64,000 bases of DNA from Flavobacterium ginsengisoli. GTDB taxonomy: Bacteria; Bacteroidota; Bacteroidia; Flavobacteriales; Flavobacteriaceae. The DNA lies in NCBI RefSeq assembly GCF_029625315.1, contig NZ_CP121110.1, positions 434,001 to 498,000 on the forward strand, given 5' to 3'. The position numbers and the translations under genes were made by a program. How positions within the stretch are numbered: the first letter of the stretch is position 1; every line of letters starts with the position of its first letter. Below, in pieces: positions 4,993 to 56,945 of this stretch. Under the pieces are notes generated by a model, which worked only from the letters and a program-made list of their open reading frames with translations, was not told the origin of the DNA and made no database searches.

Positions 4993-7217
4993 TTGAAAAA
5001 ATTCCCCAATTATATCCAAGCCGATTCAAAGGACTGTGGTGCAACCTGTATAAAGATTATTGCCAGATATTATGGTAAAACTATTCATATTCAAGATTTA
5101 AGGACTTACAGCGAAACAAGCAGAGAAGGAAGCAATTTGCTGCTTTTGGGAGATGCTGCGGAGAAAATCGGTTTTAGAACTTTGGGGGCAAAACTGAGTC
5201 ATGAAAAATTAGAAGAAGTTCCGCTTCCCTGCATATTGCATTGGAACAAGTCGCATTTTGTCGTTTTGTACAAAATAAAAAAAAGGAAGTATTATATTTC
5301 AGATCCTGGATTTGGCCTATTGGAATATGATGAAGAACAGTTTTTAAAATCTTGGATTGGAAATAATGCAGAGCGGTCGACAGAAGAAGGCATAGGTCTT
5401 TTAATAGAGCCAACGCCAAATTTCATGGACAGTAAAGATGATATTGGATCGCAAGAGAGTAAATTTGGGTTTTCGCCGCTTTTTAAATACATTATTCCTT
5501 ACAGGCATTTTTTATTGCAATTGGCCATAGGTTTAGCCGCAACGAGTTTGTCGCAGATCTACTTTTTCCGTTTCTGACCCAAAGCATTGTAGATGTAGGA
5601 ATTCAGAACCAGAACATTCATTTTGTTTATCTTATTCTGTTTGCCCAGCTTTTTCTGTTTGTAGGAAAAACGGCTTTAGATCTTATAAGAAGCTGGATTA
5701 TGCTTCATATGTCAGCGCGAATTAATATTTCTTTAATCTCAGACTTTTTCATTAAGCTCATGAACCTGCCCATATCTTTTTTTGATGTGAGGATGACAGG
5801 CGATATCATGCAGCGTATAAATGATCATCATAGAATTGAAAGCCTTCTTACTTCATCTTCGCTTACTGTTTTGTTTTCTGCAATAAATATGATAATCATG
5901 GGAGGTGTGCTGGCTTACTATAATGTTGAAATTTTTTGCGTTTTCTTTTTAGGAAGTGGCTTATATTTTTTATGGATCATCCTGTTTTTAAAACGAAGAG
6001 CAGTTCTTGATTATAAGAGGTTTGCAGAGGTGAGCCAAGAACAAAGCAAGGTCATCGAGCTTATAAGCGGCATGCAAGAAATAAAGCTTCATAATGCCGA
6101 AAAGAAGAAAAGATGGGGTTGGGAATTCATACAAGCAAGACTCTTTAAGGTCTCAATTAAAAATCTTGCATTGGAGCAGGCTCAGATTTTGGGATCAAAT
6201 TTTATTAATGAAATTAAGAATATCATAATTGTGTTTCTTTCTGCTAAATTTGTTATTGACGGGCAGATTACTTTAGGAATGATGCTGGCTATAAGTAGTA
6301 TTGTTGGAAGTTTAAATGGACCTGTCGTTCAGATTATTGCTTTTGTTAGGGAAGTGCAGGACGCTAAAATTTCATTGGCCCGCCTTTCTGAGATACATGA
6401 GAAAGAAGATGAATGCCAGCAGGAGGATAATCAGATTCATGAACTTCCAGGTGAGTTTGATATTTTAATCAATAATCTGTCTTTCCGTTACGCGGGTTTG
6501 CACGATTTTGTACTTAGCGGACTCAATTTAATGATACCTGCAAACAAAGTGACAGCTATTGTTGGGACAAGCGGAAGTGGTAAAACAACCCTAATGAAAT
6601 TGCTTTTGAAATTTTATGATTTGGAACGTGGTGCTGTAACTCTTATGGCAAAGGATCAAAAGCAGGATAATGCAACTGTCGATCTGAAAAATATAGCGCA
6701 AAAGACTTGGCGCAATGCAATAGGAACTGTCATGCAGGAAGGGTTTATATTTAATGATACTATTGCAAACAATATTGCGGTAGGATCTGAAATAATTGAT
6801 AAGGAGAAATTGAAATATGCTGCAGATGTGGCAAATATTTCTGGATACATATCAGGGCTTCCTTTAGGCTATAACACTAAGATTGGAGCAGAAGGACAGG
6901 GAATGAGCACTGGACAGAAGCAGCGCCTTCTTATTGCGCGGGCAGTTTACAAGAATCCTGAAATCTTATTTTTTGATGAAGCAACTTCAGCTTTAGATAC
7001 TAGTAATGAGCGAAAGATAATGGAGAATCTAGGAGTCTTTTTTAAAAACAGAACGGTGGTTATTATTGCCCACAGATTGAGTACCGTTATTAAGGCAGAT
7101 AAAATTGTCGTATTGGATAAGGGACAAATCATAGAAGTGGGAACACATCAAGAACTTGTTAAGTTTAAAGGGTCATATTACGAACTGGTTAGAAACCAAT
7201 TGAATTTAGGAGCCTGA
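4993..7217 (+). CDS. C39-peptidase-containing ABC exporter (bacteriocin processing and export), one frame break
   Basis: About 741 residues, starting at a TTG two bases after the previous stop. Residues 1-130 are a C39 peptidase with Q9, C15 (in KDCGAT), H88 (NKSHFV) and D104 (SDPGFG), the triad that cleaves leaders after a double glycine. A six-helix ABC membrane domain follows, then an ATPase with Walker A GTSGSGKTT (about residue 523), signature MSTGQKQR and Walker B ILFFDEATSALD. A break at 5553-5559 (GCAGATC) interrupts the first helix; TSLSQLLFPFLTQSIVDVG is restored if two bases are removed to leave GCAGC. Together with the HlyD protein downstream it should form a trans-envelope exporter that cuts and secretes the operon's peptide product, so precursors with GG-type leaders are expected upstream of the window. 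Confidence 0.9.
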
Positions 7218-7237
7218 TTAAAAATATATTTATAAAA

Positions 7238-8531
7238 ATGCCTCAGAGAACCGATATTGAGTTAAGAAGTGAAGAAGTTCAGGATATCCTGACCAAAATG
7301 CCGCATTGGATGATCCGATGGGGAACAGTTTTAATGTTTGTTATTATCATTCTGCTATTTTTCATCTCATGGTTTGTGAAATATCCGGATGTGATAAAAA
7401 CCGAAATTATAATTACTACCAATATTCCGCCAGAGAAAATCATGTCGAAATCTTCTGGAAGAATTGAGGCTATTTTGGTTAAAAATAAAACATTGGTTAA
7501 AAAGTACAGCACATTGGCTATTATCGAAAATACAGCCAATTACAAAGACGTTTTTTTGTTGAAGAGTATTGTTGATAAGCATAATATCAATAACGCTAAA
7601 GAAGAATTTCCTTTTCAACTATTGAAAAATATGCAACTGGGCGAAATTGAAAGTGCGTATGCGGCATTTGAGAAAGACTATCAGGCTCAGGAATTGAATA
7701 TAAATCTGCATCCTTTTCAAGTCGAAACCAGAGCGCAACAGTCTGAAAAAAATCAGATAAAGGAAAGAATAGGAATCTTACAGCAGCAGAAAGTGATCAA
7801 CGAGCACGAACTGGAACTTCAGAAAAATGAAGTTGCCCGTTTTGAAACGTTATTCAATAAAGGGATAATTTCTGCTCAGGAAATAGAAACCAAAAAAACT
7901 GAACTTGCTTCAGGCGCAGAAGAGTTATAAAAGTTTATTATCGTCGATTTCTCAACTTAAATCTTCTTTGATTGACAACACAAAATCGAGCCAGAATTTG
8001 CAGATTAACAGCACCAAAGAAGAAGTTAATCTCGCCCGCAATGTTTCACAATCCTTTTATCAGTTAAAAAAAGCAATAAGAGATTGGGAGCTAACATACG
8101 CGCTGAAATCATCAATAACAGGAAAGGTTACCTTTTTGCAGGTATGGAATGAAAGCCAGACTATAAATGTTGGAGATAATGTATTTTCAATTATTCCGCA
8201 TGAAGAAAATGGATTTATTGGAAAGCTAAAAGCATCTGCTTTAAATTCAGGTAAGATAGAGGTGGGACAGCGTGTCAATATTCGTCTGGCAAATTATCCT
8301 GACAGGGAGTTTGGGGTTGTGAAAGGAGAAATCAAAAATATTTCGCTCGTGCCTGATAAGGATGGAAATCTGCTAATGGATGTCACACTTTCTAAAGGCT
8401 TGAAAACATCATATGGGAAAAATATTGCTTTTCAACAAGAGATGAAAGGAAACGCCGAAATTATAACTGAAGACCTGCGTTTGATAGAGCGGATTTTATA
8501 TCAGTTTAAAAGTGTTTTTGAGGAGTCATAG
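7238..8531 (+). CDS. HlyD-family membrane fusion protein (exporter partner), one frame break
   Basis: The protein starts MPQRTDIELRSEEVQDIL and has one inner-membrane helix at about residues 28-48 (TVLMFVIIILLFFISW). A biotinyl-lipoyl half (GRIEAILVKNKTLVKKYSTL), a long coiled coil and a C-terminal beta-barrel follow (GQRVNIRLANYPDREFG). This is the usual HlyD order and it would bridge the ABC exporter to an outer-membrane channel. The frame breaks between about 7892 and 7930. Removing one base, either from the seven-A run at 7892-7898 or from ACTTGCTT just after it, gives ETKKTELLQAQKSYKSL and a continuous protein of about 431 residues. It is the last gene of the RiPP operon, 20 bases after the exporter and followed by a terminator-like hairpin. 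No TolC-type gene is in the window. Confidence 0.85.
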
Positions 8532-8544
8532 TGAGAGTTTAGAA

Positions 8545-9488: not shown

Positions 9489-9577
9489 CGTTGCAATTTT
9501 TAATTGAACCTTATAATATTAGACTGTAAAGGCCTGAAAAATCTGCAAATTTGTGCATAAAAAAGAGATAACTAGTT

Positions 9578-34100: not shown

Positions 34101-34197
34101 TACTTTGCAGGCTCCAAATGTTGAAGCTGTTTATATCGTGAGAATGACTTTATCAAATAGCAAGACGTTTACAAAAAACCTTTTAGTGAAAAACTAA
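22108..34197 (+). CDS. giant T9SS-secreted beta-helix / MBG-repeat surface protein, three frame breaks
   Basis: About 4,030 residues once three frame breaks are closed. An unusually long N-terminus precedes the export signal (YSFVTCFFLFTVLLQSQT, about residues 39-56). Four large units follow, each opening with a strand such as YVTVNGSGSKDGSSW, LYVKQNGSGDGSSW, IYVKKGSAGKGTSW or LYVKQGAVGGDGSTW and continuing as right-handed beta-helix with many GGAI-type turns. Between them are Ig-like and MBG-type modules. From about 29750 come TYDG-type repeats, then two YDG domains, then ten MBG modules of about 77 residues (31150-33465). The last 80 residues (VRIYPNPVRKNESY ... TKNLLVKN) are a type A sorting domain for the type IX secretion system. 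The breaks lie at 25774-25779 (GCAAGC), 26489-26494 (GCTTGC) and 28416-28421 (GCTTGC); removing one base at each joins the frames. Probable adhesin or matrix protein. Confidence 0.85.
31384..33231 (+). repeat. two tandem 924-base higher-order repeats of four MBG modules
   Basis: Modules two to five of the MBG array (31384-32307) recur as modules six to nine (32308-33231) at an offset of exactly 924 bases, in frame (308 residues). The start of a third copy begins at 33232, again 924 bases on. Within a unit the four modules differ clearly (openings PITVTADAS, TIEVTA, PITVTVDAS, EISVSVN). Between units the matching modules are almost identical, so the duplication is recent. Confidence 0.9.
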
Positions 34198-41781: not shown

Positions 41782-42105
41782 TGTGCTTTAATTAGAAGAA
41801 GTAAATTAAAAGTATTTCTTTGTTTAATGCAACTTTGATGCGTTAAATAATTGTTTTGTTTTGATAAATATAATTTTTAACATGCGAGTTTTATTGTTAA
41901 ATGTTTTGATGTTTAGTTGTTTACGGGTTTTTGATTATAAATAATTAGTGTAATTTGTCAAGATGAAATAAAAGTTTAATTTTACTTTTTTATAATATCC
42001 TTCTTGTTTGCCACCTAATATATTTCCTTCCTAACTATATTGGCAAGCTGTTGGTTCAGAAGGCTATTTTCAAAACTTACACTATTTACAAAACCTCATT
42101 ACCAC
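41782..42105. other. divergent control region of the phosphatase and fructan-sensor genes
   Basis: About 325 AT-rich bases between genes transcribed outward. No perfect -7 box or long palindrome was found; both promoters must lie here. Confidence 0.4.
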
Positions 42106-44847
42106 ATGTATCAATTTATAAAATATATTGTACTGGCTTTTGCAGTATCATTAAGTTTAATTTCTTGTAAAGAAAAACAAGGAAATAAGATTAAAGTTGG
42201 TTTTTCGCAGGCCATGACAACCGATGATTGGCGAAAACAAATGAATAGTTCTATTAAAATTGAAGCGTCGCTGAGACCAGAAGTCGATTTGACAATTAAA
42301 GACGCCAATAACAATGTCAATAAACAGATAGAAGACATAGAAAAATTTATTTCTAATAAAGTTGATGTTATAATTGTTTCTCCTATTCAATCTAAACCAT
42401 TAACAGCTGTTGTAGAAAAATCAATCAAAGCTGGAATTCCCGTTTTGGTTGTCGACCGAAAAATTGAGGGAGAAAATTATACAGCTTATTTAGGTGCCGA
42501 TAATATAGAAATTGGTCGAATTGGCGCTCGTTATATTATTTCACACAGCAAAGGTACTGGTAAAATTATCGAAATTACAGGAGCAAATGGGTCTTCGCCA
42601 GCCTATGAAAGATCGCTTGGTTTTAATCAGATTATCAATGAAAATAAACGTTTTAGCATTGTTAAAACCATTCAAGGGGATTGGGAAAAAGAGTCTGTGA
42701 AAGAGCCATTAAAGATTGCTCTTCAGCAAAATCCCGACGTTGAATATATTTTTGCGCATAATGACCGAATGGCTTTGAGCGCCTGGGAAACTGCCAAAAC
42801 TTTAGGATTAGAAAATAAAATTAAGTTTATTGGTGTTGATGCATTAAACAGTGTAAATGGCGGAATTGAATTGGTAAAAAATGGTGTTCTAGATGGAACA
42901 ATTTTATATCCTACTGGAGGAAATGAGGCTCTAAAATTAGCATTGAAAATTTACAACAAAGAATCTATTTCCAAAAACAACATATTAAACACTATTGTTA
43001 TCGATAAAAATAATGCAGAAATTATCGAAAACCAAATGGATAAAGTCGACCAGCGAGCAAGTTGTAATAGAATCGCGACAAGAGGCCATTAAAGTACAGG
43101 AAAAAGAATATGCTTCACAAAACAATTTGGTTCGTTTACTGAGTTTCTTTCTTGTAATTATTTTAAGCTTAACCATTTATAGCATTTATTCTACGATTTC
43201 GATTTCTAAGAAAAAGAAACAGCTGGAGAAAATTAACCAAACTGTTATTCATCAGAATAGTGAAATTCAGGAAATGGCAAAACTTGCGACTAAAAGTAAT
43301 CGCCGCAAAATTGAGTTTTTTTACAGGACTTTCACACGAGTTTAAAACTCCTATCACTTTAATAATGAGTTATGTGGAATCTTTAATAGAAAATGATAAA
43401 ATTAAAGGAACTGCATTGATCGACGAAGTTAAATTAATCCATAAAAATTCTAACCGTTTATTGCGATTAATTAATCAATTGTTAGATTTCAGAAAAATCG
43501 AAGAGCAAAAATTTACTTTAAGAGCTTCCAATACTAAGATTTATGATTTTACTAATGAAGTCATGCTTAATTTCAAAGGTGAAGCTGCGCGTAGAAATAT
43601 TGATTTTCAATTGATTTGCAAAAACAAAAATCTTGATCTTTTTATTGATCGAAATTTGATGGATAAAGTGTATTTCAATCTATTGTCAAACGCTTTTAAA
43701 TTTACGCCAGATAACGGAAAAATTACGATTTCAATTATTGAATCGTCTGATAATTCAGTTAAAATTCATTTTAAAGATTCTGGAATTGGAATTCCCGAAA
43801 ATGAATTGTCAAATGTTTTTAATCCTTTTTTTAGAGCATCAAATAATAACAAAAACAGTTCGGGAATTGGTTTGCATTTATCGAAAGAATTTGTGCTTTT
43901 GCATAAAGGGAATATTGAATTGAAATCAAAACAAGGCGGCGAATTTGTAATAACGTTATTGAAAGGAAATGAGCATCTACAGCCTTCAGAAATTATTCAA
44001 AAAGTAGAAAATTTAAGTAGTATTCCAAGTCTGATTACTGATAATTTGGAGCTAGAATCAGAATTAAAAGATTTAAATGCAATTGCAGATTCTGAAAAAC
44101 ATTCTCTTTTAATTATAGAAGATAATGCCGATTTGGTAACTTTCTTAAAAGCTAAATTATCTAATGAATATATTGTAAATATTTCTGATGGGAGTGATGC
44201 TATAGAAAAAGCTTTAGAAATTATTCCTGATATTATTATTTGTGATATTAATCTAGTGGATAAAGATGGTTACGAAATTAGTAAAGAATTAAAAAAAGAT
44301 CTTCGTTCCTCACATATTCCTATTATTATTTTAACGGCGCAAAGTAATAAAGAAGCTGTTTTAAAAGGATTACAAAGCGGTGTCGATCTCTATTTGACTA
44401 AACCATTTAGTCTTTCAATTTTGAAACAGTCTATTTTGAGTCTGCTTTTCAACCGAGAAAAATTACGTTATTATTATACTAATAATATATATCGTGTAGA
44501 ACCTGAATCTAAATTTGGAAACCAGGAACAGACTTTCATTACCAAAATGAATAGCATTATTATGGCAAATGTTGAGAATCCTAAATTTTCTGTTGAAGAA
44601 TTGGCAGACAAATTAGGCGTTTCTAGAGTACAGTTGTATAGAAAAGTAAAAGCAATTATCGGAATTAATATTAGCGATCATATTAATAATGTCAAATTAG
44701 AGAAAGTCTGCAGAGCTTTTAAAGTCAAATGAAATGAATATTTCTGAAATTGCGTACTCATTAGGTTTCTCTTCTCCAAACTATTTTTCTACAGCTTTTA
44801 AGAATAAATTTGGAATTTCTCCTAAAGAATATAAAACGTCCAGCTAA
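42106..44847 (+). CDS. hybrid two-component system with periplasmic sugar-binding sensor (fructan locus regulator), three frame breaks
   Basis: About 913 residues. Order: lipoprotein-like leader (AFAVSLSLISC), a type 1 periplasmic sugar-binding domain (about residues 25-325: KVGFSQAMTTDDWRKQM, VDVIIVSPIQSKPLTAVVEK, VLVVDRKIEG, YIFAHNDRMALSAWETAK), a transmembrane helix (LLSFFLVIILSLTIYSIYS), histidine kinase (H-box LSHEFKTPITL, N-box NLLSNAFKFTPD, GIGIPENE, GIGLHLS), receiver (DIIICDINL) and AraC HTH (IAYSLGFSSPNYFSTAF). A ribose/fructose-binding-type sensor instead of Y_Y_Y repeats is the layout of BT1754, the fructose-sensing regulator of B. thetaiotaomicron, and the genes that follow fit. 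Breaks: 43053-43058 (GCGAGC), 43301-43306 (CGCCGC) and 44706-44711 (GTCTGC); restoring them gives VDQQQVVIES, KSNAAKLSFFTG and EKAAELLKSNEMNISEIAYS. Confidence 0.85.
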
Positions 44848-45077
44848 TTTGTCTTTAAAATTGTTTCTTTTAAAGTATCAATTTTGAAGGTGATGTAACA
44901 AAATCGAAACTACAAGGTTTTCGTAAAAGATTTTTAATTTACGTAAAGTCTTGTAAATAAAGGTTTTGAGCTTAAAATGCTAAACCATCAATATTTATAG
45001 GAATAAATTGTAACATCATTAAAAATAAGTTGATTTTTTTGCAGATATCTTAGCAACAAGTTTTTAATACATGTACA

Positions 45078-46436
45078 ATGAATAAGATATTGATTTGGTC
45101 TGTTACTGCTGCACTGGCAGGTTTTCTTTTCGGTTTTGATACCGTAGTTATTTCTGGAGCTGATAAACAATTACAGCTTCTGTGGCACTCGTCAGATGCC
45201 TTTCATGGTTCAGTTGTTATGGCAATGGCATTATGGGGAACTGTAGTTGGTGCTATTTTTGGAGGAATCCCAACTAATAAAATAGGACGTAAAAAAACGC
45301 TGTTCTGGATTGGTATTTTATATTTCGCTTCAGCAATTGGTGCTGCCTTTGCAAATAATCCATTTGTATTTGCTGCTTTTAGATTTATTGGCGGTTTAGG
45401 AGTTGGTGCTTCTACTATTGCTGCTCCGGCTTATGTGTCAGAAATTGCTCCGGCAGACAAACGAGGAAGATTGGTTGCTTTATATCAGTTTAATATTGTA
45501 TTAGGTATTTTAATTGCTTTCATCTCCAATTATTTTCTGAAAGATATTGGAGAAAATGCATGGAGATGGATGATTGGTGTTCAGGCAATTCCTTCTCTTA
45601 TCTATATTCTTTTTATTTTGACAATTCCAGAAAGTCCAAGATGGCTTTTGTCTAAAAACCGTGACGAAGAAGCTCGTAAAGTTTTATATACCATTGATCC
45701 GTTTGCAAATATTGCCGACTTAATAGATGATTCCCGTGAAAACGGTGTTACCAAACACGAAAATATTTTCATGAAGAAATACCGTTTCCCTTTGATTCTC
45801 GCTTTTTTAATTGCCTTTTTCAATCAGTTTTCTGGAATTAATGCATTTCTATATTACGCGCCAAGAATTTTTGAAGAAGCCGGCTTAGGACAAAATACAG
45901 CGTTGTTAAGTAGTATCGGAATTGGAGTTACAAATCTTATTTTCACCTTAATTGGTGTGGCATTAATTGACAAATTAGGAAGAAAGTTGTTAATGTACAT
46001 TGGTTCTGTTGGATATATTATTTCACTCGGACTAGTATCGGCTTCTTTCTATTACAATTGGGGAGGCTTATCAGTTCCTATTTTCCTTTTCCTTTTTATT
46101 GCTTCACATGCAATTGGTCAGGGCGCGGTAATTTGGGTTTTTATTTCAGAAATATTTCCAAATCATATTCGAGCATCTGGACAAGCATTTGGAAGTTCAG
46201 TACATTGGGTTTTGGTCGCGATTATTCCCTCTTTAATTCCAATGTTATTTTCAGAAATCGGACCCGAAGTTGTATTCCTTATTTTTACTTTAATGATGGT
46301 TTTACAATTGTTATTTGTAATTTTTCTGATGCCGGAAACAAAAGGAATCTCTTTAGAAGCTTTAAGCGAAACACTAACTAAAAAAAATAACCACAAAAAT
46401 GAAATCAAAGAAACATCTGCCGTTAGCTCTTTATAG
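45078..46436 (+). CDS. MFS sugar porter (fructose importer of the fructan locus)
   Basis: A 452-residue inner-membrane permease with twelve hydrophobic segments. Sugar-porter family signatures: GFLFGFDTVVISGA in helix 1, NKIGRKKTLF after helix 2, RFIGGLGVGAS, PESPRWLL at the end of helix 6, QFSGINAFLYYAP in helix 7 and DKLGRKLLM after helix 8, ending LMPETKGISLE. It should import the free hexose released outside or in the periplasm. It follows the sensor gene by 230 bases and overlaps the GH32 gene by 38 bases, so the two are translationally coupled. Fructose as substrate is inferred from the locus; the protein alone says only hexose or pentose. Confidence 0.9.
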   Translation: MNKILIWSVTAALAGFLFGFDTVVISGADKQLQLLWHSSDAFHGSVVMAMALWGTVVGAIFGGIPTNKIGRKKTLFWIGILYFASAIGAAFANNPFVFAAFRFIGGLGVGASTIAAPAYVSEIAPADKRGRLVALYQFNIVLGILIAFISNYFLKDIGENAWRWMIGVQAIPSLIYILFILTIPESPRWLLSKNRDEEARKVLYTIDPFANIADLIDDSRENGVTKHENIFMKKYRFPLILAFLIAFFNQFSGINAFLYYAPRIFEEAGLGQNTALLSSIGIGVTNLIFTLIGVALIDKLGRKLLMYIGSVGYIISLGLVSASFYYNWGGLSVPIFLFLFIASHAIGQGAVIWVFISEIFPNHIRASGQAFGSSVHWVLVAIIPSLIPMLFSEIGPEVVFLIFTLMMVLQLLFVIFLMPETKGISLEALSETLTKKNNHKNEIKETSAVSSL

Positions 46437-48016
46437 TGCTGCCTTACTGTCGATAGTAGGATTAAAACCGTCTTCTGCAACTGCACAAACTGCTGCCGTA
46501 ACTGTATCGAACACCGCGGAAGAACAAATGTATCGACCAAATTTTCATTTTACGCCAAAAAAAGGCTGGATGAATGATCCTAACGGAATGTTTTTCTCCA
46601 ATGGATATTATCATTTATTCTACCAGCATTATCCTGACGGAAATACATGGGGACCAATGCATTGGGGACATGCCATTTCTAAAGATTTAATTAAATGGGA
46701 AGAACAGCCAATTGCGCTTTACCCAGATAAAGACAAATATATATTTTCAGGAAGTGCTGTTGTCGACACGCACAATACATCTGGATTAGGAACTGGAAAT
46801 ACAGCACCAATTGTTGCTATTTATACTTTGCATGATATGGCAAAGGAAAAAGCTGGCAAAATTGATGTGGAGCAGCAGGATATTGCTTTTTCTAATGATA
46901 ATGGTTTTACATGGCAGAAATTTGAGGAAGGAAATCCTGTCGTTAAAAATCCTGGAATTAGAGATTTCCGCGATCCAAAAGTATCTTGGGATGAAACTCA
47001 TAAACAATGGATTATGGCTTTGGCAGCGACAGGATCGAATTCATTTTTACAAATCAGCGAATCTGAAAAACTGGGAATTTGCATCTGAATTTGGAAAAAA
47101 TATTGGTGCTCATGGCGGTGTTTGGGAATGTCCCGATTTCTTCGAAATAAAAGTAGAAGGGACAAAAGAAACCAAATGGGTTTTAATCGTAAATCTTAAT
47201 CCAGGCGGGCCAAACGGAGGTTCTGGAGTTCAATATTTTGTTGGAGATTTTGACGGAAAAACATTTACGATGGATCAAAGTTTTGCCGAAAGAGTAAATA
47301 ACGAAAAAGCAGTTTGGGCAGATTATGGAAAAGATAATTATGCCGGAGTAACTTGGAATAATGTTCCAACTTCAGACGGAAGACGTTTATTTATCGGATG
47401 GATGTCAAATTGGGAATATGCACAGCAAGTTCCAACAACAACTTGGAGAAGTAGCACCACAATTCCGCGCGAATTGAAACTGGTTAAAAAAGAGGGCAAT
47501 TATAATTTGGTTAGTATGCCAGTACGAGAACTAAATAATTATGTTGCTGAAACTATTAGTGCAAAGAGTTTAAACGGAAAAGGAAATTTAACATTGGTTA
47601 AAGATGGTTTTAATGATTTGACTAAAAGCATTATTAACTTAGATTTAAAAAAATTAAAACAATGCGATTACACTTTTACGCTTTCTAATTTAGATGGCGA
47701 ATCTTTAAGTTTTGGACTCAATAACAAAGAGAATTTTCTATTCATAGATCGTTCTAAAGCCGGTAAAGTTGATTTCTCTGATAAGTTTGCTTCAACCATA
47801 AGTAAGGCGTTTTTGGAAGGAAGCCAAAAAAGTGCCGCTTTTAAAATTATTTTGGATAAAACTTCAATTGAAATTTTTTATAACAATGGCGAAAAAGTGA
47901 TGACTGAAATCTTTTTTCTAAATAAACCATTCTCAGCTTTATCTATTTCTTCGAAAGAAAAAATGGAGATAAACAATTTTAAAATTCAAGAACTAAATTT
48001 TTCTAAAAGTCATTAA
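46399..48016 (+). CDS. GH32 exo-fructanase (levanase/inulinase type), secreted, one frame break
   Basis: About 539 residues. Signal peptide to about residue 29 (ends SSATAQ). The five-bladed propeller carries the GH32 triad: nucleophile Asp60 in GWMNDPNG, transition-state Asp in FRDPKV (191-193) and acid/base Glu in GVWECPDFFE. The usual C-terminal beta-sandwich follows. FYQHYPDGNTWGPMHWGHA and IFSGSAV are typical of fructose-releasing exo-enzymes. The frame breaks at 47023-47029 (GCAGCGA): removing one base gives MALAAQDRIHFYKSANLKNW, the normal GH32 sequence. Overlapping the MFS porter gene, it probably frees fructose for import. Choice between levan and inulin linkage is not visible. Confidence 0.88.
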
Positions 48017-48200
48017 AAAAGAATAGCAAAAGCACTTTTTCTTTAGTGAAGAAATGACTGCCAAAGCTTGAAAACATTCGAAAGATTATTCCTTTCTGAC
48101 CTTTTATGCTTTATTCTGAAATAGATCGGCCACTTAAAATTGGCATTCGAAATACTAACTACGTAATTAACCAATTAAATATAACCAAAACCATTAATTT

Positions 48201-51200
48201 ATGAAAAGTAAGATTATTTATTTTCTATTTTTCTTCTTTCCGATGCTGATGATGACGGCTCAGGAAAACGGAATAAAAGGAACGGTCTTTTCGTCTGATG
48301 ACGGAATGCCGCTTCCTGGAGCGACAGTAATTATTTCAGGAACTAATACCAGTTCAGTAACTGACTTTGACGGAAATTTTTCCTTGCCGAATGTTGCTCC
48401 AGATGCTGTGCTTGTAGTTTCTTTTATAGGATATGCACCGCAATCGATTTCAGTTAAAGGGCAAAAAACAATCAATGTAACGCTAAAAGTTGACAACAAT
48501 CAATTGAATGAAGTTGTTGTAACGGGATATTCAAAACAAAAGAAAACGGATATTACAGGAGCGGTTGCTGTTGTAAACATGAAGGAAGTCATGAAACAGC
48601 CAGAACCAAACCCTATAAAAGCTTTACAGGGAAGAATTGCCGGAGTAAAAGTATCGTCTGATGGTTCGCCAAGCGGCGGAAATACCAAAGTGGTGATTCG
48701 TGGTGTTGGAACTTTAAACAACACAGATCCGCTTTATGTTATTGACGGAATGCCGACAAAATCTGGAATGCATGAACTAAACCCGAATGATATTGAAACC
48801 ATTCAGGTTCTGAAAGATGCTTCTTCTGCAAGTATTTACGGTTCTCGCGCTTCAAACGGTGTGATTATCATTACAACCAAAAAAGGAAAAGAAGGTAAAA
48901 TGAGAATCAATTTCAGCACCTATGCTTCCTTTTCTGATTATTCAAGAAAGTTAGATGTTCTAAATGCAAACCAATTTGGACAGGCGCTTTGGCAAGCAAA
49001 TATTAACGACGGTTTAAATCCGAATAACAATAATTTACGCTATCAGTTTGATTGGTCGGTAAATAATAATAAACCGCAATTGAATAAAGTTTTGGTTCCA
49101 GAATATTTAGATGCACAGCAAACTCTTAAAGCTTCAAATACAGATTGGTATGATGCTATTTCTCAAACCGGAGTTGCCAATTCTTATGATTTGTCTGTTT
49201 CAAATGCATCAGATAAAGGAAATTATGTTTTCTCGCTTGGTTATTATGATAACGAAGGTGTCGTAAAAACTACTGATTTCGAAAGAATTTCGGCTAGAAT
49301 GAACAGTTCTTATAAATATTTTGACGGGAAATTAGTTATTGGAGAAAATTTCAGTTTAAACCGTACAAACGAAGTGACAGATCCTGGCGTTTTAGATCCT
49401 GCACTTAGAGCTTTGCCAATTATTCCGGTTCACACTGTAGACGGAATAGGTTGGGGAGGTCCTGTTGGAGGAATGAACGATAGACAAAATCCTGTTCGTC
49501 TTTTAGAATATAATAAAGACAATAAATACGATTATTTGCGTCTTTTTGGTAACGTTTACGCGGATTTGGAAATCATTAAAAACCTGCATATCAAAACCAG
49601 TTTCGGAATGGATTATGGTTTTTATAAGAAGCGTACTTTACAAAGAAGCTACAAATCAGGTTATCTGCAAAATGATCAAACTTCTGTAACTATCGATCAG
49701 TCAATCAGTGATAAATGGACTTGGACGAACACAGCAATTTATAGCTTAAACTTTGGAAAAAGCAATCTGAATTTGATGGCGGGAACGGAAATGTATAAAG
49801 ATACTTACGATACAAATACATTACGTAAAAATGACTTTTTGATTGAAACGCCAGATTATATGTATCCAGATGCAGGAACGGGAGAATCTTTTACTAGTGG
49901 AACTTCGACTGTATATTCTTTGCTTTCTTATTTTGGAAAAGTAGATTACGAGTTTGATAATCGTTATTTGGTTTCGGCTACAATTCGTCGTGATGGTTCT
50001 TCTCGTTTTGGAAAAAACAATCAATTCGGAACATTTCCGGCAGTTTCAGCGGGATGGAGAATCAGCAATGAAAACTTCATTAAAAACAATGCTCCTGTTT
50101 TTTCTGACTTAAAATTAAGAGCAGGCTGGGGACAAACCGGTAATCAAGAAATTAGCAATACAGCAGTTTACTCGCTTTATCTGGCAAGTTACGCAGGTGG
50201 AAGCCCAACTTGGGCAACATCTTACGGAACCGCTTACGATATTGCAGGAAACGGAAACGGATTGCTTCCGTCTGGTTTTATCGCAACGCAATCAGGAAAT
50301 GATGATTTGAAATGGGAAACTACGACACAGACCAATATTGGTTTGGACTTTGGTTTATTCAAACAAAAATTAAGCGGTTCTGTAGATTATTATATCAAGA
50401 AAACAGATGATATTTTGGTATTGCCACCGTACTTAGGAGTTATAGGAGAAGGAGGAAACCGTTGGGTAAATGGAGCTTCTATGGAAAACAGAGGTTGGGA
50501 ATTTTCTTTAGGATATCATGACGAAACTTCATTTGGATTGAAATATGATATTTCAGGCAATATTTCGGCTAACAGAAACAAAATGACCAAATTACCAGAT
50601 GAAGTTAAAAACAATTATGGAGGTGATGGTCTAAACGATAATATCTTGGGACGACCAATAAATTCAATGTACGGTTACGTTACTGATGGCCTGTTTACAA
50701 GTCAGGATCAGGTTGATAATTCGGCTATTCAAGAAGGAAAAGGCCTTGGAAGAATTCGTTACAAAGATTTAAATGGCGATGGCGTAATTACAGACAAAGA
50801 TCGTACATGGATTGGAAACCCAAATCCAGGATTGCTGTACGGAATCAATTTAAACTTGTCTTATAAAAACTTTGATTTTACCACTTTTTGGGAAGGTGCA
50901 ACAGATGTTGATGTGATTAACAACACAAAATACCAAACTGATTTTTGGAGTGTTGATGACGTAGGATCAAATAAAGGAACTCGTTTACTGAATGCCTGGT
51001 CTTTGGATAATCCAAATTCAACTATTCCGGCTTTGACAACGGTTGACAGAAATGCAGAATCTAGATTTTCGACTTATTATGTAGAAAATGGCAGTTACCT
51101 TAAACTAAGAGTTTTGCAACTTGGATATAGTTTGCCAAAAGAACTATTGAAAAAGCTAAGTATGGAAAGCTTCAGACTGTACATCAGCGGTCAAAATTTA

Positions 51201-51305
51201 TTGATTCTTGATGCGAAAAGCTTCACAGGAGTTGATCCTGAAAATGCAGGTTTTGGATATCCACAGCCAACAACTTTTACTGCTGGTCTTAATTTTACTT
51301 TATAA
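48201..51305 (+). CDS. SusC-family TonB-dependent outer-membrane transporter (fructan locus)
   Basis: 1,034 residues. Signal peptide, then a CarboxypepD_reg-like domain (GIKGTVFSSDDGMPLPGATV ... VSFIGYAPQSISV), the SusC linker LNEVVVTGYSKQKK, a plug (ALQGRIAGVKVSSDGSPSGG, VLKDASSASIYGSRASNGVI) and a 22-strand barrel ending in a Phe-rich strand (FTAGLNFTL). With the SusD lipoprotein encoded 16 bases downstream it should import fructo-oligosaccharides in a pedal-bin mechanism. It is intact, unlike several neighbours. The 185-base gap upstream may contain the promoter used by the hybrid regulator. Confidence 0.93.
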   Translation: MKSKIIYFLFFFFPMLMMTAQENGIKGTVFSSDDGMPLPGATVIISGTNTSSVTDFDGNFSLPNVAPDAVLVVSFIGYAPQSISVKGQKTINVTLKVDNNQLNEVVVTGYSKQKKTDITGAVAVVNMKEVMKQPEPNPIKALQGRIAGVKVSSDGSPSGGNTKVVIRGVGTLNNTDPLYVIDGMPTKSGMHELNPNDIETIQVLKDASSASIYGSRASNGVIIITTKKGKEGKMRINFSTYASFSDYSRKLDVLNANQFGQALWQANINDGLNPNNNNLRYQFDWSVNNNKPQLNKVLVPEYLDAQQTLKASNTDWYDAISQTGVANSYDLSVSNASDKGNYVFSLGYYDNEGVVKTTDFERISARMNSSYKYFDGKLVIGENFSLNRTNEVTDPGVLDPALRALPIIPVHTVDGIGWGGPVGGMNDRQNPVRLLEYNKDNKYDYLRLFGNVYADLEIIKNLHIKTSFGMDYGFYKKRTLQRSYKSGYLQNDQTSVTIDQSISDKWTWTNTAIYSLNFGKSNLNLMAGTEMYKDTYDTNTLRKNDFLIETPDYMYPDAGTGESFTSGTSTVYSLLSYFGKVDYEFDNRYLVSATIRRDGSSRFGKNNQFGTFPAVSAGWRISNENFIKNNAPVFSDLKLRAGWGQTGNQEISNTAVYSLYLASYAGGSPTWATSYGTAYDIAGNGNGLLPSGFIATQSGNDDLKWETTTQTNIGLDFGLFKQKLSGSVDYYIKKTDDILVLPPYLGVIGEGGNRWVNGASMENRGWEFSLGYHDETSFGLKYDISGNISANRNKMTKLPDEVKNNYGGDGLNDNILGRPINSMYGYVTDGLFTSQDQVDNSAIQEGKGLGRIRYKDLNGDGVITDKDRTWIGNPNPGLLYGINLNLSYKNFDFTTFWEGATDVDVINNTKYQTDFWSVDDVGSNKGTRLLNAWSLDNPNSTIPALTTVDRNAESRFSTYYVENGSYLKLRVLQLGYSLPKELLKKLSMESFRLYISGQNLLILDAKSFTGVDPENAGFGYPQPTTFTAGLNFTL

Positions 51306-51320
51306 TAAAAGATTAAAAAA

Positions 51321-53013
51321 ATGAAAAAAATAATATATATGGCAGGATTTTTAGCGATAGGTTTCTTCGCTTCCTGTTCCGATTTTTTAGAAAATGATCC
51401 GCGTGGCGTTTTGTCAGAAAAAGATATTGTAACGCCTGAGAATGTTGAAGGATTTATGAATGTCGCTTACGCTCAATTAGGAAATGATCATTACGATTCT
51501 CCGTACAGTTTATGGCCATTTGGAAATGTTCGTTCTGATGATGCCTACAAAGGTGGAAGCGGTACGAATGATATTCAGGATTTTCACTTTTTTGAAGTTT
51601 CAAATAATATCCGCCCAGATTTTGGAGAGTTGGACAGTTTCTGGTATATCAGTTATGTGGGCGTTTCAAGAGCCAATAAAGCATTGAAAGCTTTGGAACA
51701 AATCTCAGAAGCAGATTATCCGTTGAAGAAAACGAGAATGGCTGAAATGCGTTTCTTGAGAGGGCATTTTTACTTTATGCTGAAAATCATGTTCAGAAAT
51801 GTGCCTTATATTACCGAAGATGTTCCGGTTGAAGATTATAAAACGATTTCAAACAAAGCACTTTCAAACGAAGAACTTTGGGAAAAAATTGCAGAAGATT
51901 TTCAGGCAGCAGCTGATAATTTGCCTGATACACAACCAGAAGTTGGACGTGCCAATAAAAAAGCGACTTATGCTTATTTGGCAAAAACTAGATTGTATCA
52001 GGCTTATACGCAGGATGAAACTTTTAAAGTTACAGGAATCAGTCAGCAAGCATTTGCAGGAAGTAATTGCCGCAACGGATAAAGTAATCGGAAAAGCTTC
52101 TTTAGAACCTGACTTTGCCAACAACTTCTTACCGGGAACTTATGAAAACGGACCTGAATCTATTTTCTCAATTCAGTTTTCTGATAACGACGGAACTTTA
52201 TACGGAAGATTAAATTTCTCGGATGTTCTTTCTACGCCACAAGGTTTAGGCTGTTGTGATTTTCATAAACCAAGCCAAAATTTAGTGAATGCTTTTAAAA
52301 CAGGAGCAAATGGTCTGCCTGAATTTGATACGTACAACAACGAAGATTTTGATTACAAAAATATAGATGCAAATACGGTTGATCCAAGATTATATCATAC
52401 GGTTGCAATGCCGGGTCTGCCTTACAAGTATGATCCAGAATTTTTATATGTTGAAGCTTGGGTACGTTCTCCAGGAACGTATGGTTATTATGCTTCTTTA
52501 AAAGAAAACGTTGCCCCAAATTGCAGTTGTGTTGTAAATATTGATCCATTTTACGGAAATTCTAAAAACAGAATTCAGATTCGTTATGCTGATGTGATTT
52601 TGATGCGTGCCGAAGCTTTGATTGAATTAGGAAGACAATCTGAAGCTTTGCCCTTAATTAATGAAATCAGAGAAAGAGCAGCGCAAAGTACAGGAAGATT
52701 ACCTTATGTGAGTAACTTCAAAATCAATACTTATGTGGATGGAAGCAATTGCAACTGGACACAGGATTTTGCCCGTAAAGCTTTGCGTTGGGAACGTCGT
52801 TTAGAATTGGCGATGGAAGGAAGTCGATTCTTTGACCTTGTTCGTTGGGGAATTACAGATCAGGTTATGAATGATTTTTATGCAAAAGAAAAAACAAAAC
52901 GTACCTATTATCAAGATGCTTTTTTTGATGCGCATAAAGAAGAATATTGCCCAATTCCGTTGAAGCAAATTAATTTCAGTCAGGGATTGTACAAACAGAA
53001 TCCAGGTTATTAA
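51321..53013 (+). CDS. SusD-family glycan-binding lipoprotein (fructan locus), one frame break
   Basis: About 564 residues. Lipobox FFASC at Cys19 anchors it to the outer membrane. The helical TPR scaffold of SusD is visible (VGVSRANKALKAL, MRFLRGHFYFMLKIMF, NKKATYAYLAKTRLYQAY), and the C-terminal part has the family motif RYADVILMRAEALIELG and LRWERRLELAMEGSRFFDLVRWG. The frame breaks at 52046-52051 (GCAAGC): GCAGC gives ISQQHLQEVIAATDKVIG. Its partner SusC is immediately upstream. It ends 19 bases before the surface-binding protein gene. Confidence 0.9.
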
Positions 53014-53032
53014 TCTTTAAAAAATCAGCAAT

Positions 53033-54430
53033 ATGAAAAAAGCTTTAAATAAATATTGGACCAAAGTGTCTATAGTATTCGCAATGATTTTTATGATTAC
53101 TGCCTGCGAGAATAGTTTTGAAACTGGCGGATTTGATGTGAGTTCGCCTTCAAATGTACTTTCATTCAAATTGAATGGAGTTTCAGGAAGCATTGATCAG
53201 GCAGCAGGAAAAATTACTGTTGTAATGCCTTACGGGTCTGATATAACAGCCATAAAACCGGAAGTTGTTTTTGTAGAAGGTGCGACATCAAATCCAGAAT
53301 TAAATTCGGCGATGAATTTTACAAATCCGGTAAAATTCAGAGTGGTTAACGGTAATTTATATAAAGATTATACAGTGACTACAACCGTTTTGAGTCCAAT
53401 TAAGAGTTTTACAATTAATGGAGTTGCAGCGACTGTAAACGACATTAGCAAAACCATTAATATGACGCTTCCTGAAAATACTGATTTAACAGCGCTTAAA
53501 CCAGTAATTGAAACAACTGCTGGTGTTACGATTTCACCTGCTTCAGGAGCAACAGTTGATTTTACAAATGCAGTTACTTTTGTAATAACATCAAACGGAA
53601 AAAGCGTTAATTATACCGCAAATGTTGGAGTTCCGGTAACAGGATTAACTGTGGCGTTTTTAGGAACTGCGGCTACAAGATCAGGAATTACAAATATGGA
53701 TGAAGTTACGGCTTCGAACTGGTTGTTTGATAACTTTCCAGGAGCTAAATATATTTCTTTCGAAAGTATACAAAACGGTGCCGATTTAAGTGATATTGAC
53801 GTCATTTGGTGGCATTTTGATTCGGTCGCCAATTTACCTTCTGTAGCTTATAATCCTGCGGTTACAAATGCATTGAAAAATTTCAGAACAAATGGAGGAA
53901 ATCTGTTGTTGACTTCATTTGCTTCACAATATGTTGATGCTTTAGGAATTGTTCCGTCAGGAAAAGGACCAAATAATGTTTTTGGTGACTTTCCTCCAAA
54001 CGGATTTGTAGACGGAAATTCATGGGGAATGTCATTCGTTGGTCATGAAGGTCATCCAATATTCCAAGGTCTAACCACTTTTGAAGCTGGAAAAGCCAAT
54101 TTACTGCAAAGTGGAACTTTCAGATTAAATCATACAGCGTGGTGGTTTTTACCGGAATGGGGAGGCTACAACAATGGAGAAGGTTGGAGAAACCAAACAG
54201 GAGGAACCAATCTGGCAAGTGAAGCGTGGGATAATGAACTTAACGGAAGAGTAACCATTGCAGAATTTCCAAATACAAGCACAAATAAAAATGTAATTGT
54301 TATCTCGATGGGAGCTTACGATTGGTACAATGAAACCAATAGCAGCGGAGTGCCAAGTCAGGCAAACGAGTTTATTACAAATATCAAACTGTTGACACAA
54401 AATAGTATCAATTATCTAGCGGCAAAATAA
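53033..54430 (+). CDS. surface glycan-binding lipoprotein (DUF5018/DUF4960-like) of the fructan locus
   Basis: 465 residues. Lipoprotein signal ending FMITAC. Two tandem beta-sandwich repeats (SFKLNGVSGSIDQAAGKITV and SFTINGVAATVNDISKTINM, about residues 42-200) resemble DUF5018. A C-terminal Trp-rich domain (WWHFDSVANLP, NHTAWWFLPEWGGYNNGEGW, MGAYDWYNE) resembles the DUF4960 domain of the levan-binding protein BT1761. Position right after SusC/SusD is where such SusE-type binding proteins are usually encoded. It has no catalytic motifs. The aromatic clusters are candidates for fructan contact, which is inference. Confidence 0.78.
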   Translation: MKKALNKYWTKVSIVFAMIFMITACENSFETGGFDVSSPSNVLSFKLNGVSGSIDQAAGKITVVMPYGSDITAIKPEVVFVEGATSNPELNSAMNFTNPVKFRVVNGNLYKDYTVTTTVLSPIKSFTINGVAATVNDISKTINMTLPENTDLTALKPVIETTAGVTISPASGATVDFTNAVTFVITSNGKSVNYTANVGVPVTGLTVAFLGTAATRSGITNMDEVTASNWLFDNFPGAKYISFESIQNGADLSDIDVIWWHFDSVANLPSVAYNPAVTNALKNFRTNGGNLLLTSFASQYVDALGIVPSGKGPNNVFGDFPPNGFVDGNSWGMSFVGHEGHPIFQGLTTFEAGKANLLQSGTFRLNHTAWWFLPEWGGYNNGEGWRNQTGGTNLASEAWDNELNGRVTIAEFPNTSTNKNVIVISMGAYDWYNETNSSGVPSQANEFITNIKLLTQNSINYLAAK

Positions 54431-54456
54431 TCCACTTTGAATTTAATTTAATTAAA

Positions 54457-56013
54457 ATGAAATATAGAAATATAATCACAATCGCCTCTGTTTTCTTTTC
54501 GCTGGTTTCGTGTAGTCAGGATGAAACGTATATTGGAGGTTCGATTTCGGGAGGGAATTCTGAAATAACAAGTGTTTTTCCTGTTCCGCCGGCGCAATGG
54601 ATGGGCACGAACGATCCTTATTACAGCGCGGGTTATACGGGAGATATTATGCCTTTTTTCGATAACGGAAAATTTCATATTTATTTTCTGCATGATGCAC
54701 AAAATAAACCTGCCGGAAAAGGATTTCATGATATTCATGAATACCAAAGCACAGATTTGGCACATTTTACTTATGAAGGTCAAACCATTCCGTATGGTAC
54801 AACGCTTGAACCTGATTTTGCTATTGGCACAGGATCAGTTGTCAAAGTGGGTAATCTCTATTATTTTTATTATACAGGGCACAACGAAAATCCGGCTTTT
54901 GTGCAGTCGAATGCCAGAGAAAGTGTTTTATGTGCAACAAGCAACGATTTGAAAAAATGGACAAAAGTTCCGTCTTTTAAAATTACAGCTCCTGCAGGAT
55001 ATTACAATTATGATTTCAGAGATCCGCACGTGTTTTATAATGATGAATTGAAAAAATATTCAATGTTAGTAAGCACACAGACAGAACCAGGAAGAAAAGC
55101 TGTTTTGTTACATTTTACAATCGCAGATCCTGCATCGGGAAAATGGGATGTTGAAGCTCCAATTTATACCACAACTCCTGAAGATAATTATCTGATGATG
55201 GAATGTGCGGATATTTTCAAAATGGGAAGCAATTGGTATTTAATTTTTTCTGAGAATTGGAGCGGAAACAAAGGAACGCATTACAGAATTTCATCATCAA
55301 TCAATGGGCCATGGATAAAACCTGAGAATGACAGAATTGACGGAGAATATTTTTATGCAGGAAAAACAGCTTCTGACGGAAATAAAAGATATGTTTTTGG
55401 ATGGAATGCCAGAAAAACACCTGAAAATGATTTAGGAAACAAGGATTGGGCTGGAAATATGGTTATTCATGAATTGATTCAGAATTCAGATGGAACTTTA
55501 GGAACGCAATCACCGAAATCGGTTAAGGATTTATTTTCGAAAAAGAATGCTACTGCAGAAGTAAATGCCATTTCAGCAAATGCAACAGCTAATAATGGAA
55601 CTTATTCTTTATCTGGAGAAACAGAAAAAGCAATGGTTACTTTTAAAAGCGTTGGAAAGAAAGTTAAAATAAAAGCCGAAATCACTTTAGCGAAAGCTAA
55701 CGGAACAGCCGGATTTGTTTTTCATACCAATGATACAGGAAGTTATTATAAAGTAGTTTTGGATATTGCTAATGGAAAAATAAGCGGTTATAATTCGGCT
55801 TCACAGGAAGTAACAAGCTTGCCTTTTGCTTTTCAGATAAATACAAAATATGATGTTGAAGTAATTGCTGAAGGAAGTGTTGTAGTCTTTTATATCAACG
55901 GAAAAGCAGCGCTCACCAATCGCATTTATGGGAGAGACAAAAATAAATGGGGTTTAATTGCAGAAGGGCAAACAAGTACAATTTCAAACCTTCAGGTAAC
56001 GCAGCCCGAATAA
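54457..56013 (+). CDS. GH32-family surface lipoprotein enzyme (variant motif, endo-type candidate)
   Basis: 518 residues. Lipobox SLVSC (Cys19) suggests it sits on the cell surface. The propeller carries a variant first motif: instead of WMNDPNG it reads YTGDIMPFFDNGKFHIYFLH, with Asp63 as likely nucleophile. FRDPHVF (188-190) and MMECADIF (Glu248) are the other catalytic residues. A C-terminal beta-sandwich (about 370-518: TAGFVFHTNDTGSYYKVVLD) follows. Surface-anchored GH32 enzymes in Bacteroides fructan loci are often endo-acting, cutting polymer for SusC/D uptake, and the contrast with the soluble exo-type enzyme upstream fits that division of labour. The linkage specificity is open. Confidence 0.8.
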   Translation: MKYRNIITIASVFFSLVSCSQDETYIGGSISGGNSEITSVFPVPPAQWMGTNDPYYSAGYTGDIMPFFDNGKFHIYFLHDAQNKPAGKGFHDIHEYQSTDLAHFTYEGQTIPYGTTLEPDFAIGTGSVVKVGNLYYFYYTGHNENPAFVQSNARESVLCATSNDLKKWTKVPSFKITAPAGYYNYDFRDPHVFYNDELKKYSMLVSTQTEPGRKAVLLHFTIADPASGKWDVEAPIYTTTPEDNYLMMECADIFKMGSNWYLIFSENWSGNKGTHYRISSSINGPWIKPENDRIDGEYFYAGKTASDGNKRYVFGWNARKTPENDLGNKDWAGNMVIHELIQNSDGTLGTQSPKSVKDLFSKKNATAEVNAISANATANNGTYSLSGETEKAMVTFKSVGKKVKIKAEITLAKANGTAGFVFHTNDTGSYYKVVLDIANGKISGYNSASQEVTSLPFAFQINTKYDVEVIAEGSVVVFYINGKAALTNRIYGRDKNKWGLIAEGQTSTISNLQVTQPE

Positions 56014-56038
56014 AAACTAATATTAAAATAATTCTAGA

Positions 56039-56945
56039 ATGAATAAGGGAAAAAACCTTAAGGCGATGGCATACGGAGAGGTTCTTTGGGATGTCTTTGC
56101 CAATGAAAAAAAGATTGGCGGAGCTCCATTGAATGTGGCCTTACGCATGAAAACGTTAGGTTGCGAAGTAGCCATGATAAGCTGTGTAGGAAATGACGAA
56201 GATGGAAAGGCAATAAAAAGTCAAATAAAAGAGCTTGGGCTTGAAACAGATACGATTGTAGTGTCACAAGATTTTCCAACGGGTTTGGTCAATGTTACAT
56301 TAAATGAACGTGGATCGGCAACGTATGAAATAAATTATCCGGCAGCTTGGGATAAAATTGTTTTGAATGATTTAGCAAAAACTACCGTTGCAGAAGCAGA
56401 TGTACTGATTTACGGAAGTTTGGTTTGCCGTGACACGGTTTCGAGAAATGCTCTAGAAGAATTGCTTCAAAATGATGTTTATAAAGTATTTGATGTGAAT
56501 TTAAGAAAACCGCATTATACTTATCAAATCTTAGAAGAACTTATGCAATCAGCCGACTTTATTAAATTTAATGATGAAGAATTACTTGAGATCGCAAAAA
56601 AGATGAATTCTCCTTTTAAAACTTTGGAAGAAAACATGGCTTTTATTGAAGAAAAAACGAAAGCCACAGCGATGTGTGTTACCAAAGGAAAACATGGAGC
56701 TTTACTGTTATGGAAAGGGAAAATCTATGAAAATGGAGGTTACCCAATTGAAGTTGCAGATACTGTTGGTGCAGGAGATTCTTTCTTAGCGAGCTTTAAT
56801 CACTTCATTATTAAATAGTAGAGATCCTCAAAGTTCAATTGATTTTGCCTGTGCAGTAGGAGCACTTGTTGCTGAGGCGCCTGGTGCAAATCCCGAAATT
56901 TCTACTTCAAGAATTAATGATTTAATGGCAACAGTTAAAGGTTAG
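56039..56945 (+). CDS. PfkB-family fructokinase, one frame break
   Basis: About 302 residues. Ribokinase/PfkB motifs: AYGEVLWDVFANEKKIGGAP at the substrate end, VDVN-like KVFDVNLRKPHYT, KFNDEEL, CVTKGKHGALL and the catalytic/anion-hole signature DTVGAGDSF. The frame breaks just after it at 56789-56794 (GCGAGC). GCAGC restores SFLAALITSLLNSRDPQSSI and the protein runs on to a stop at 56945 (ending NDLMATVKG). It phosphorylates the imported fructose and closes the locus. A terminator follows at 57005. Confidence 0.88.

What the first reader, a model, noticed from the sequence alone, without database searches (positions are those of the whole stretch)
5553..56794. Frame breaks cluster on GCWGC sites: one extra base in GCAGC/GCTGC at about 15 positions
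Seen in the sequence: reading-frame breaks at 21192 (GCAAGC), 25774 (GCAAGC), 26489 (GCTTGC), 28416 (GCTTGC), 38030 (GCAGAC), 39346 (GCTGAC), 39843 (GCGAGC), 40015 (GCTGAC), 40685 (GCTCGC), 43053 (GCGAGC), 43301 (CGCCGC, a looser GCNGC case), 44706 (GTCTGC), 47023 (GCAGCGA), 52046 (GCAAGC) and 56789 (GCGAGC). Each becomes GCAGC or GCTGC (or GCCGC) after removing one base, and in every case that restores a family-typical protein (for example EKAAELLKSNEMNISEIAYS, MALAAQDRIHFYKSANLKNW). 5553 (GCAGATC) fits with two bases removed. Dozens of other GCWGC sites in the window are intact, so only a fraction is hit, but breaks elsewhere are rare (five or six). Inference: GCWGC carries a modified base in this strain (BbvI/TseI-type specificity) and produced systematic consensus insertions, most likely in uncorrected nanopore data. 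A real GCWGC-targeted mutation process is the exciting but less likely reading.
Basis: partly seen in the sequence, partly recalled or inferred. Interest (0 to 1): 0.8.

Follow-up and report, generated by a model that had tools for sequence, protein, structure and literature searches.

The report
Sequencing errors at one DNA motif
In this Flavobacterium-like genome record about half of the GCAGC/GCTGC sites look misread, which seems to break many genes including vital ones, so the broken genes are almost surely sequencing errors, most likely caused by a chemical mark on that DNA word.

Summary
The clustering is real; the breaks are almost certainly not biology. Against relative G015 (329 kb aligned) there are 62 one-base frame-breaking insertions in genes, 42 carrying a GCWGC-plus-one six-mer; of 510 five-mers, GCAGC/GCTGC has the highest insertion rate (29 of 444; mean 0.36%). 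A reference-free test agrees: 42 of 88 'extra base' frame switches carry the six-mers, 0 of 53 opposite ones; G015 gives 1 of 37. 68 of 225 aligned genes are broken, including rplF, rpoA, secY, rpsD and eno. Relatives with the same C5 methyltransferase (89%, 94.5% identical) show no such loss. The likely cause is an orphan C5 methyltransferase beside vsr, akin to enzymes found with NgoFVII/PLD-type nucleases (GCSGC/GCWGC class). Modification-driven nanopore errors at GCWGC are in print (PMC10687267). Corrections: other breaks are not rare. Platform and methylation were not tested directly.

The parts
   Evidence: reference-free; no relative aligned here
   Evidence: G008, G006, G015, G040
43075..43079 (+). 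length-preserving change: GCAGC in a relative, GCGAC in the window (one of four GCGAC/GTCGC swaps found; others at 46215, 51963, 53825)

Best explanation
The frame breaks are consensus errors of a long-read assembly, not features of the organism's DNA. Shown: in the aligned parts errors centre on GCWGC (GCAGC/GCTGC), about half of these sites are lost, and the loss takes the form of extra bases and, more often, same-length changes; whole-genome word counts agree. Inferred: GCWGC carries a modified base, most likely 5-methylcytosine placed by the orphan C5 methyltransferase at 4,007,513 of the contig (beside vsr); the basecaller was not trained on that mark, so the read consensus is wrong in similar ways at many sites. 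Separately, homopolymers are shortened, as is usual for nanopore data.
For: Insertion rate highest at GCAGC of 510 five-mers, 29 of 444. GCAGC is the most depleted five-mer, 223 against 447, and GCGAC the most enriched, 219 against 132. At 399 GCWGC sites of G015 with good flanks, own reads GCWGC at 121 and GCGAC or GTCGC at 47; the reverse direction gives 1 of 191. Whole genome: AGCAGC 1,089 in 5.41 Mb (201 per Mb; 22 other same-genus genomes about 355-591), AGCGAC 264 per Mb (others about 117-228), GCGAGC 1.73 times its reversed control (others about 0.60-1.18). Vital genes broken: rplF, rpoA, secY, rpsD, eno. One contig, completeness 95.52. 11 of 19 one-base deletions lie at homopolymers of 4 or more, against 19% of random positions. 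Two C5 methyltransferases were found, one of them without a nuclease beside it. Its plasmid relatives (50-53% identical, TRD-like part 52-57%) have an NgoFVII/PLD-type nuclease next to them or one gene away in 4 of 5 places viewed, the class of CglI/NgoAVII (GCSGC) and BceSIV (GCWGC) (PMC4267653, passages). Precedent: PMC10687267 (passages).
Against: No reads, platform label or methylation data were available. The published GCWGC case in Listeria was mostly mismatches, not insertions. About half of the frame breaks lack the six-mers (44 of 86). The methyltransferase could recognise GCSGC instead; GCCGC/GCGGC is not depleted (150 against 162), which fits GCWGC but does not prove it. GCGGC at G015 GCWGC sites is also asymmetric (35 against 18), which I cannot assign to error or divergence. 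Only four methyltransferase families were searched. Second copies of the broken vital genes were not sought. Window 48-64 kb against L001-L012 gave 16.5 kb of alignment with no break.
Confidence: 0.87

Rival explanations
1. A real mutation process in this strain targets GCWGC and inserts or swaps bases.
For: The motif dependence itself is what such a process would leave.
Against: Vital genes are broken. 68 of 225 aligned genes are broken. G015 and G006 hold the same methyltransferase at 89% and 94.5% identity yet have normal AGCAGC counts. Deamination of methylcytosine would give C to T, not GCAGC to GCGAC. Homopolymer deletions occur in the same record.
Confidence: 0.01
2. Ordinary long-read noise without any modified base; the motif is only a basecaller weakness at GCWGC.
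For: 44 of 86 frame breaks lack the six-mers and deletions favour homopolymers.
Against: Such a weakness would be expected in long-read genomes in general; single-contig relatives G010 and G022 show normal AGCAGC counts, though their platforms are unknown. CCAGG (0 of 257) and GGACC (0 of 176) show no insertions.
Confidence: 0.07
3. The mark is not a symmetric methylcytosine on GCWGC but a mark on one strand only, for instance m6A on GCAGC.
For: GCAGC and GCTGC are the two strands of one site, so sequence alone cannot tell the cases apart.
Against: No match to PF01555 in own; matches to PF02384 and PF07669 look like PrmC, TrmN6 and a small-molecule methyltransferase by my own reading. PF02086 and others were not searched.
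Confidence: 0.04
4. The genes are true pseudogenes of a decaying genome.
For: Many genes are broken.
Against: One-base insertions favour one motif and hit core genes; intact copies exist in relatives.
Confidence: 0.01

Closest known systems
Modification-mediated nanopore errors at GCWGC/GCAGC in Listeria ST87 (PMC10687267; passages read)
   Same: Same motif; thousands of consensus errors in nanopore-only assemblies, greatly reduced there by whole-genome amplification or relative-based correction.
   Different: There mostly mismatches and another suspected system (mza); here frame-breaking insertions stand out, with same-length miscalls alongside. No reads were seen here.
Dcm (CCWGG) consensus errors of nanopore basecallers in Klebsiella (PMC6591954; passages read)
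   Same: Methylation that the basecaller was not trained on makes up much of the consensus error at one motif.
   Different: Other motif and enzyme; CCAGG shows 0 insertions in 257 sites here.
CglI / NgoAVII / BceSIV restriction-modification class (PMC4267653; passages read)
   Same: The orphan C5 methyltransferase is 50-53% identical to plasmid enzymes that have NgoFVII/PLD-type nucleases close by (4 of 5 viewed); two of the five also have vsr, one of these with an AAA ATPase next to it.
   Different: In this genome the methyltransferase and vsr are there, but no nuclease or ATPase frame was recognised in the 3.9 kb read.
GCWGC m5C in Prevotella intermedia, a fellow Bacteroidota (PMC5608340; passages read)
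   Same: Shows methylcytosine at position 2 of GCAGC and GCTGC in this phylum.
   Different: Shown there by bisulfite; only inferred here.

Membership tests
modification-mediated long-read consensus errors | errors concentrated on one short motif | tested here: met
   about half of the frame breaks are of other kinds
modification-mediated long-read consensus errors | genome-wide, also in vital genes, absent from relatives | tested here: met
modification-mediated long-read consensus errors | the motif is modified in native DNA | not testable with these tools
   no reads or signal; a candidate methyltransferase is present
modification-mediated long-read consensus errors | errors vanish with short reads or amplified DNA | not testable with these tools
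   no read data
nanopore assembly | homopolymer shortening and a one-contig assembly | tested here: met
   11 of 19 one-base deletions at runs of 4 or more; 1 contig. The platform itself was not seen, so this is a sign, not proof
CglI/NgoAVII/BceSIV-class methyltransferase (GCSGC or GCWGC) | C5 methyltransferase domain, intact | tested here: met
   PF00145 285 bits, no stop inside
CglI/NgoAVII/BceSIV-class methyltransferase (GCSGC or GCWGC) | PLD nuclease and ATPase beside it | tested here: not met
   not recognised in the 3.9 kb around it; nuclease found near 4 of 5 plasmid relatives
CglI/NgoAVII/BceSIV-class methyltransferase (GCSGC or GCWGC) | methylates GCWGC | not testable with these tools
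   inference from class, TRD-like similarity and the error motif
real GCWGC-targeted mutation | compatible with life; present in the cell's DNA | tested here: not met
   rplF, rpoA, secY, rpsD and eno broken; essentiality is established knowledge; second copies not sought

The most novel reading that the evidence does not exclude
The GCWGC mark is something other than plain methylcytosine (for example a larger cytosine modification), strong enough to make the basecaller add a base or swap two; public assemblies would then hold readable traces of unknown DNA modifications.
Probability: 0.06. Interest if true: 0.55.

Novelty: new member of a known kind. Interest (0 to 1): 0.3.

Why it matters
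Gene calls, pseudogene counts and protein sequences from this record cannot be trusted at GCWGC: about half of the sites in the aligned parts look misread, more of them by same-length changes than by extra bases, so many pass as amino-acid changes. The same signature, counted as depletion of one word and gain of its misread forms against a relative, can flag such records without reads and can hint at the specificity of an orphan methyltransferase.

Tried and rejected
Rejected: true pseudogenes and targeted mutation (vital genes broken; clean relatives with the same methyltransferase). Rejected: GCNGC as the motif; GCCGC/GCGGC is not depleted (150 against 162), although it ranks second for insertions (10 of 162), which I read as sites where G015 differs from this strain at the middle base; this was not tested site by site. 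Rejected as cause: the HpaII-type system (MTase A at 3,188,603). That HpaII recognises CCGG is recalled. The two words holding CCGG that one search printed show 0 insertions (CCCGG 0 of 58, ACCGG 0 of 120); against this, CCGG is slightly lower in own (188 against 221) and one unassigned insertion lies by a CCGG.

Fetched but unused: G015:C10 stretches. Rows dropped: one search left out words seen fewer than 30 times; one search left out sites with flanks under 75% identity and printed only the commonest 40 states; one search left out pairs with under 2 kb aligned; all alignment counts left out gaps within 25 columns of an alignment end, in flanks under 70% (60%), or balanced by a near gap. One search did not list the break at 56789 against G005 for that reason; one search shows it.
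Full report
What the window is. The window is bases 434,001-498,000 of a single 5,414,540-base contig (G000), 33.6% G+C. The best public matches for its aldehyde dehydrogenase gene are largely Flavobacterium and other Flavobacteriaceae, and 36 of the 59 held relatives searched are labelled same genus. Completeness is 95.52, while the same-genus relatives above 5 Mb show 99-100.

Is the clustering real? I aligned G000 to G015 by blastn and counted gaps that break a frame inside an open G015 gene. First set, 250,337 bases aligned: 76 frame-breaking gaps, of which 57 are one-base insertions and 14 one-base deletions. 39 of the 57 insertions touch a word one base longer than GCWGC (3 of them only through words holding an intact GCWGC); so do 2.3% of 20,000 random positions and 0 of the 14 deletions. 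The most enriched six-mers at the insertions, with no motif named beforehand, are GCGAGC (16, expected 0.06) and GCAAGC (15, expected 0.14), both strands counted together. With the ribosomal and rpoB regions added (329,471 bases), there are 86 one- or two-base breaks: 62 one-base insertions (42 with one of eight six-mers), 2 two-base insertions, 19 one-base and 3 two-base deletions. Of 510 five-mers with 30 or more occurrences, GCAGC/GCTGC has the highest insertion rate (29 of 444; mean over all words 0.36%); GCCGC/GCGGC is second (10 of 162); CCAGG 0 of 257, GGACC 0 of 176.

A test that needs no relative. Pairs of long open frames on one strand that overlap by 6-150 bases were listed, split by whether the step fits an extra base or the opposite. 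Own: 88 extra-base switches, 42 with a six-mer in the overlap (4.7% expected); 53 opposite switches, 0 with. G015: 37 with 1, and 45 with 2. Ten public loci (L003-L012): 6 with 0, and 9 with 0. Window alone: 7 with 4, and 6 with 0. As a baseline, 18 pairs with 2 kb or more aligned among 12 public loci (186.5 kb aligned) hold 7 breaks, none of this type. The same call aligned window 48-64 kb to these loci: 16.5 kb, no break; and G004 to G015: 6.2 kb, no break.

Ten of the sixteen positions are extra bases relative to aligned relatives, four have only the reference-free support, one (5553) shows a switch of the other kind without a six-mer, one (21192) was not tested. At 43301 and 40015 the relatives do not read GCWGC.

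Extra bases are the smaller part. In the aligned sequence GCAGC/GCTGC occurs 223 times in own and 447 times in G015, the largest depletion of any five-mer (z -8.7; the next is -3.1), and GCGAC/GTCGC is the largest gain (219 against 132). Site by site, at 399 G015 GCWGC sites with flanks of 75% identity or more, own reads GCWGC at 121, GCGAC or GTCGC at 47, GCAAC at 24, ACAGC at 15, GCAGA at 12, GAAGC at 10, and the listed plus-one forms at 27. In the reverse direction, from 191 own GCWGC sites, the same classes count 1, 5, 5, 1, 0 and 0. GCGGC (35 against 18) is also uneven and GCCGC (17 against 13) nearly even. With natural divergence alone the two directions should give similar counts, so I read the excess (96 over the five uneven same-length classes named, GCGGC left out; 27 plus-one) as misreads. 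In the window, of 41 places where a relative reads GCWGC (flanks 70% or more), own is intact at 8, has an insertion at 3, a GCGAC/GTCGC swap at 4 and another change at 26, many of these likely ordinary divergence since the relatives are mostly 69-84% identical (identities). Whole-genome counts fit: AGCAGC 1,089, that is 201 per Mb against about 355-591 in 22 other same-genus genomes; AGCGAC 1,431, 264 per Mb against about 117-228; GCGAGC 688, 1.73 times its reversed control against about 0.60-1.18 (per Mb one relative, G016, is higher than own). Sizes of relatives are given rounded, so the per-Mb figures, which I worked out by hand, are approximate. If the aligned parts are typical, roughly 7,000 GCWGC sites are expected and about half would be misread; this is extrapolation.

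Artefact or biology. 68 of 225 fully aligned G015 genes of 100 residues or more are broken in own, 38 of them by a motif-type insertion. Among the broken genes are ribosomal protein L6 (motif-type insertion), RNA polymerase alpha (insertion at a GCTGC-like site, outside the eight six-mers), enolase (one motif-type insertion, one deletion), SecY (two-base deletion) and ribosomal protein S4 (deletion in a run of A). That these genes are vital is established knowledge; second copies were not sought. rpoB and the L2 gene had no stop inside the matched part. GCAGC to GCGAC matches no mutation process known to me; deamination of methylcytosine would give C to T. G015 and G006 encode the same methyltransferase at 89.0% and 94.5% identity and have normal AGCAGC counts, so possession of the enzyme does not damage the motif. 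11 of 19 one-base deletions lie at homopolymers of four or more in G015, against 19% of random positions, a usual mark of nanopore data (established knowledge). Together: consensus errors, most likely of nanopore reads without short-read polishing. The platform itself was not seen.

The likely cause. Two C5 methyltransferases were found in own (PF00145), none with PF01555; matches to PF02384 and PF07669 look like PrmC, TrmN6 and a small-molecule methyltransferase by my own reading of the frames. PF02086 and others were not searched. MTase A (3,188,603) is followed by an HpaII-family nuclease gene, as on an Acinetobacter plasmid. MTase B (4,007,513) stands beside a vsr gene; I recognised no nuclease in the 3.9 kb read. 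Five plasmid relatives among the best hits are 50-53% identical to it, and 52-57% over the TRD-like residues 180-262 (the TRD limits are my estimate). In four of these five neighbourhoods a nuclease named NgoFVII family or PLD domain lies next to the methyltransferase or, in Priestia, one gene away; Priestia and Lactobacillus johnsonii also have vsr, Priestia with an AAA ATPase beside it; the fifth has no nuclease named. NgoFVII recognises GCSGC (PMC4081073, passages); CglI and NgoAVII recognise GCSGC and BceSIV GCWGC in the same class (PMC4267653, passages). GCCGC/GCGGC is not depleted in own (150 against 162), so if MTase B is the cause, GCWGC is its site. This is inference.

Known or new. 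PMC10687267 (passages) reports nanopore-only Listeria assemblies with thousands of errors, mostly mismatches, at GCAGC/GCTGC in four strains, greatly reduced by amplification. PMC6591954 (passages) reports such errors at Dcm sites. M.BatI acting in E. coli (PMC8936443, passages), Clostridium thermocellum (PMC6791906, passages) and Prevotella intermedia (PMC5608340, passages) give methylcytosine at GCWGC; an environmental survey has m4C there (PMC6329791, passages). So this is a further case of a known kind of artefact, with frame-breaking insertions and a same-length swap as its visible forms. I make no claim that the insertion form is unreported; the listings were not read further apart from the papers named here.

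Noticed in passing
window 42-1178 and 2307-7217: Lantibiotic dehydratase N-terminal domain, a DUF6734 protein and an ABC transporter: looks like part of a lanthipeptide-type peptide cluster running in from the left edge.
   Followed up: no
window 22108-34197: Four overlapping long frames that together look like one very long surface protein (Ig_7 and Chlam_PMP matches in the first frame).
   Followed up: partly
window 42040-56818: Periplasmic sugar-binding protein, hybrid sensor kinase, sugar transporter, SusD and DUF4960 genes: looks like a polysaccharide-use locus.
   Followed up: no
L175:1037-2439 (G000:C1 about 4,007,500): vsr gene and a C5 methyltransferase facing each other with overlapping ends; the methyltransferase is also in G015 and G006.
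   Followed up: yes
L171:1306-3629 (G000:C1 about 3,188,600): C5 methyltransferase and HpaII-family nuclease pair; the same pair lies on an Acinetobacter pittii plasmid with a 69-71% identical methyltransferase.
   Followed up: partly
G000:C1 4275052, 4277489, 4281615, 4293016: Deletions in short homopolymers break genes, some of them core genes; a second error type apart from the motif.
   Followed up: partly
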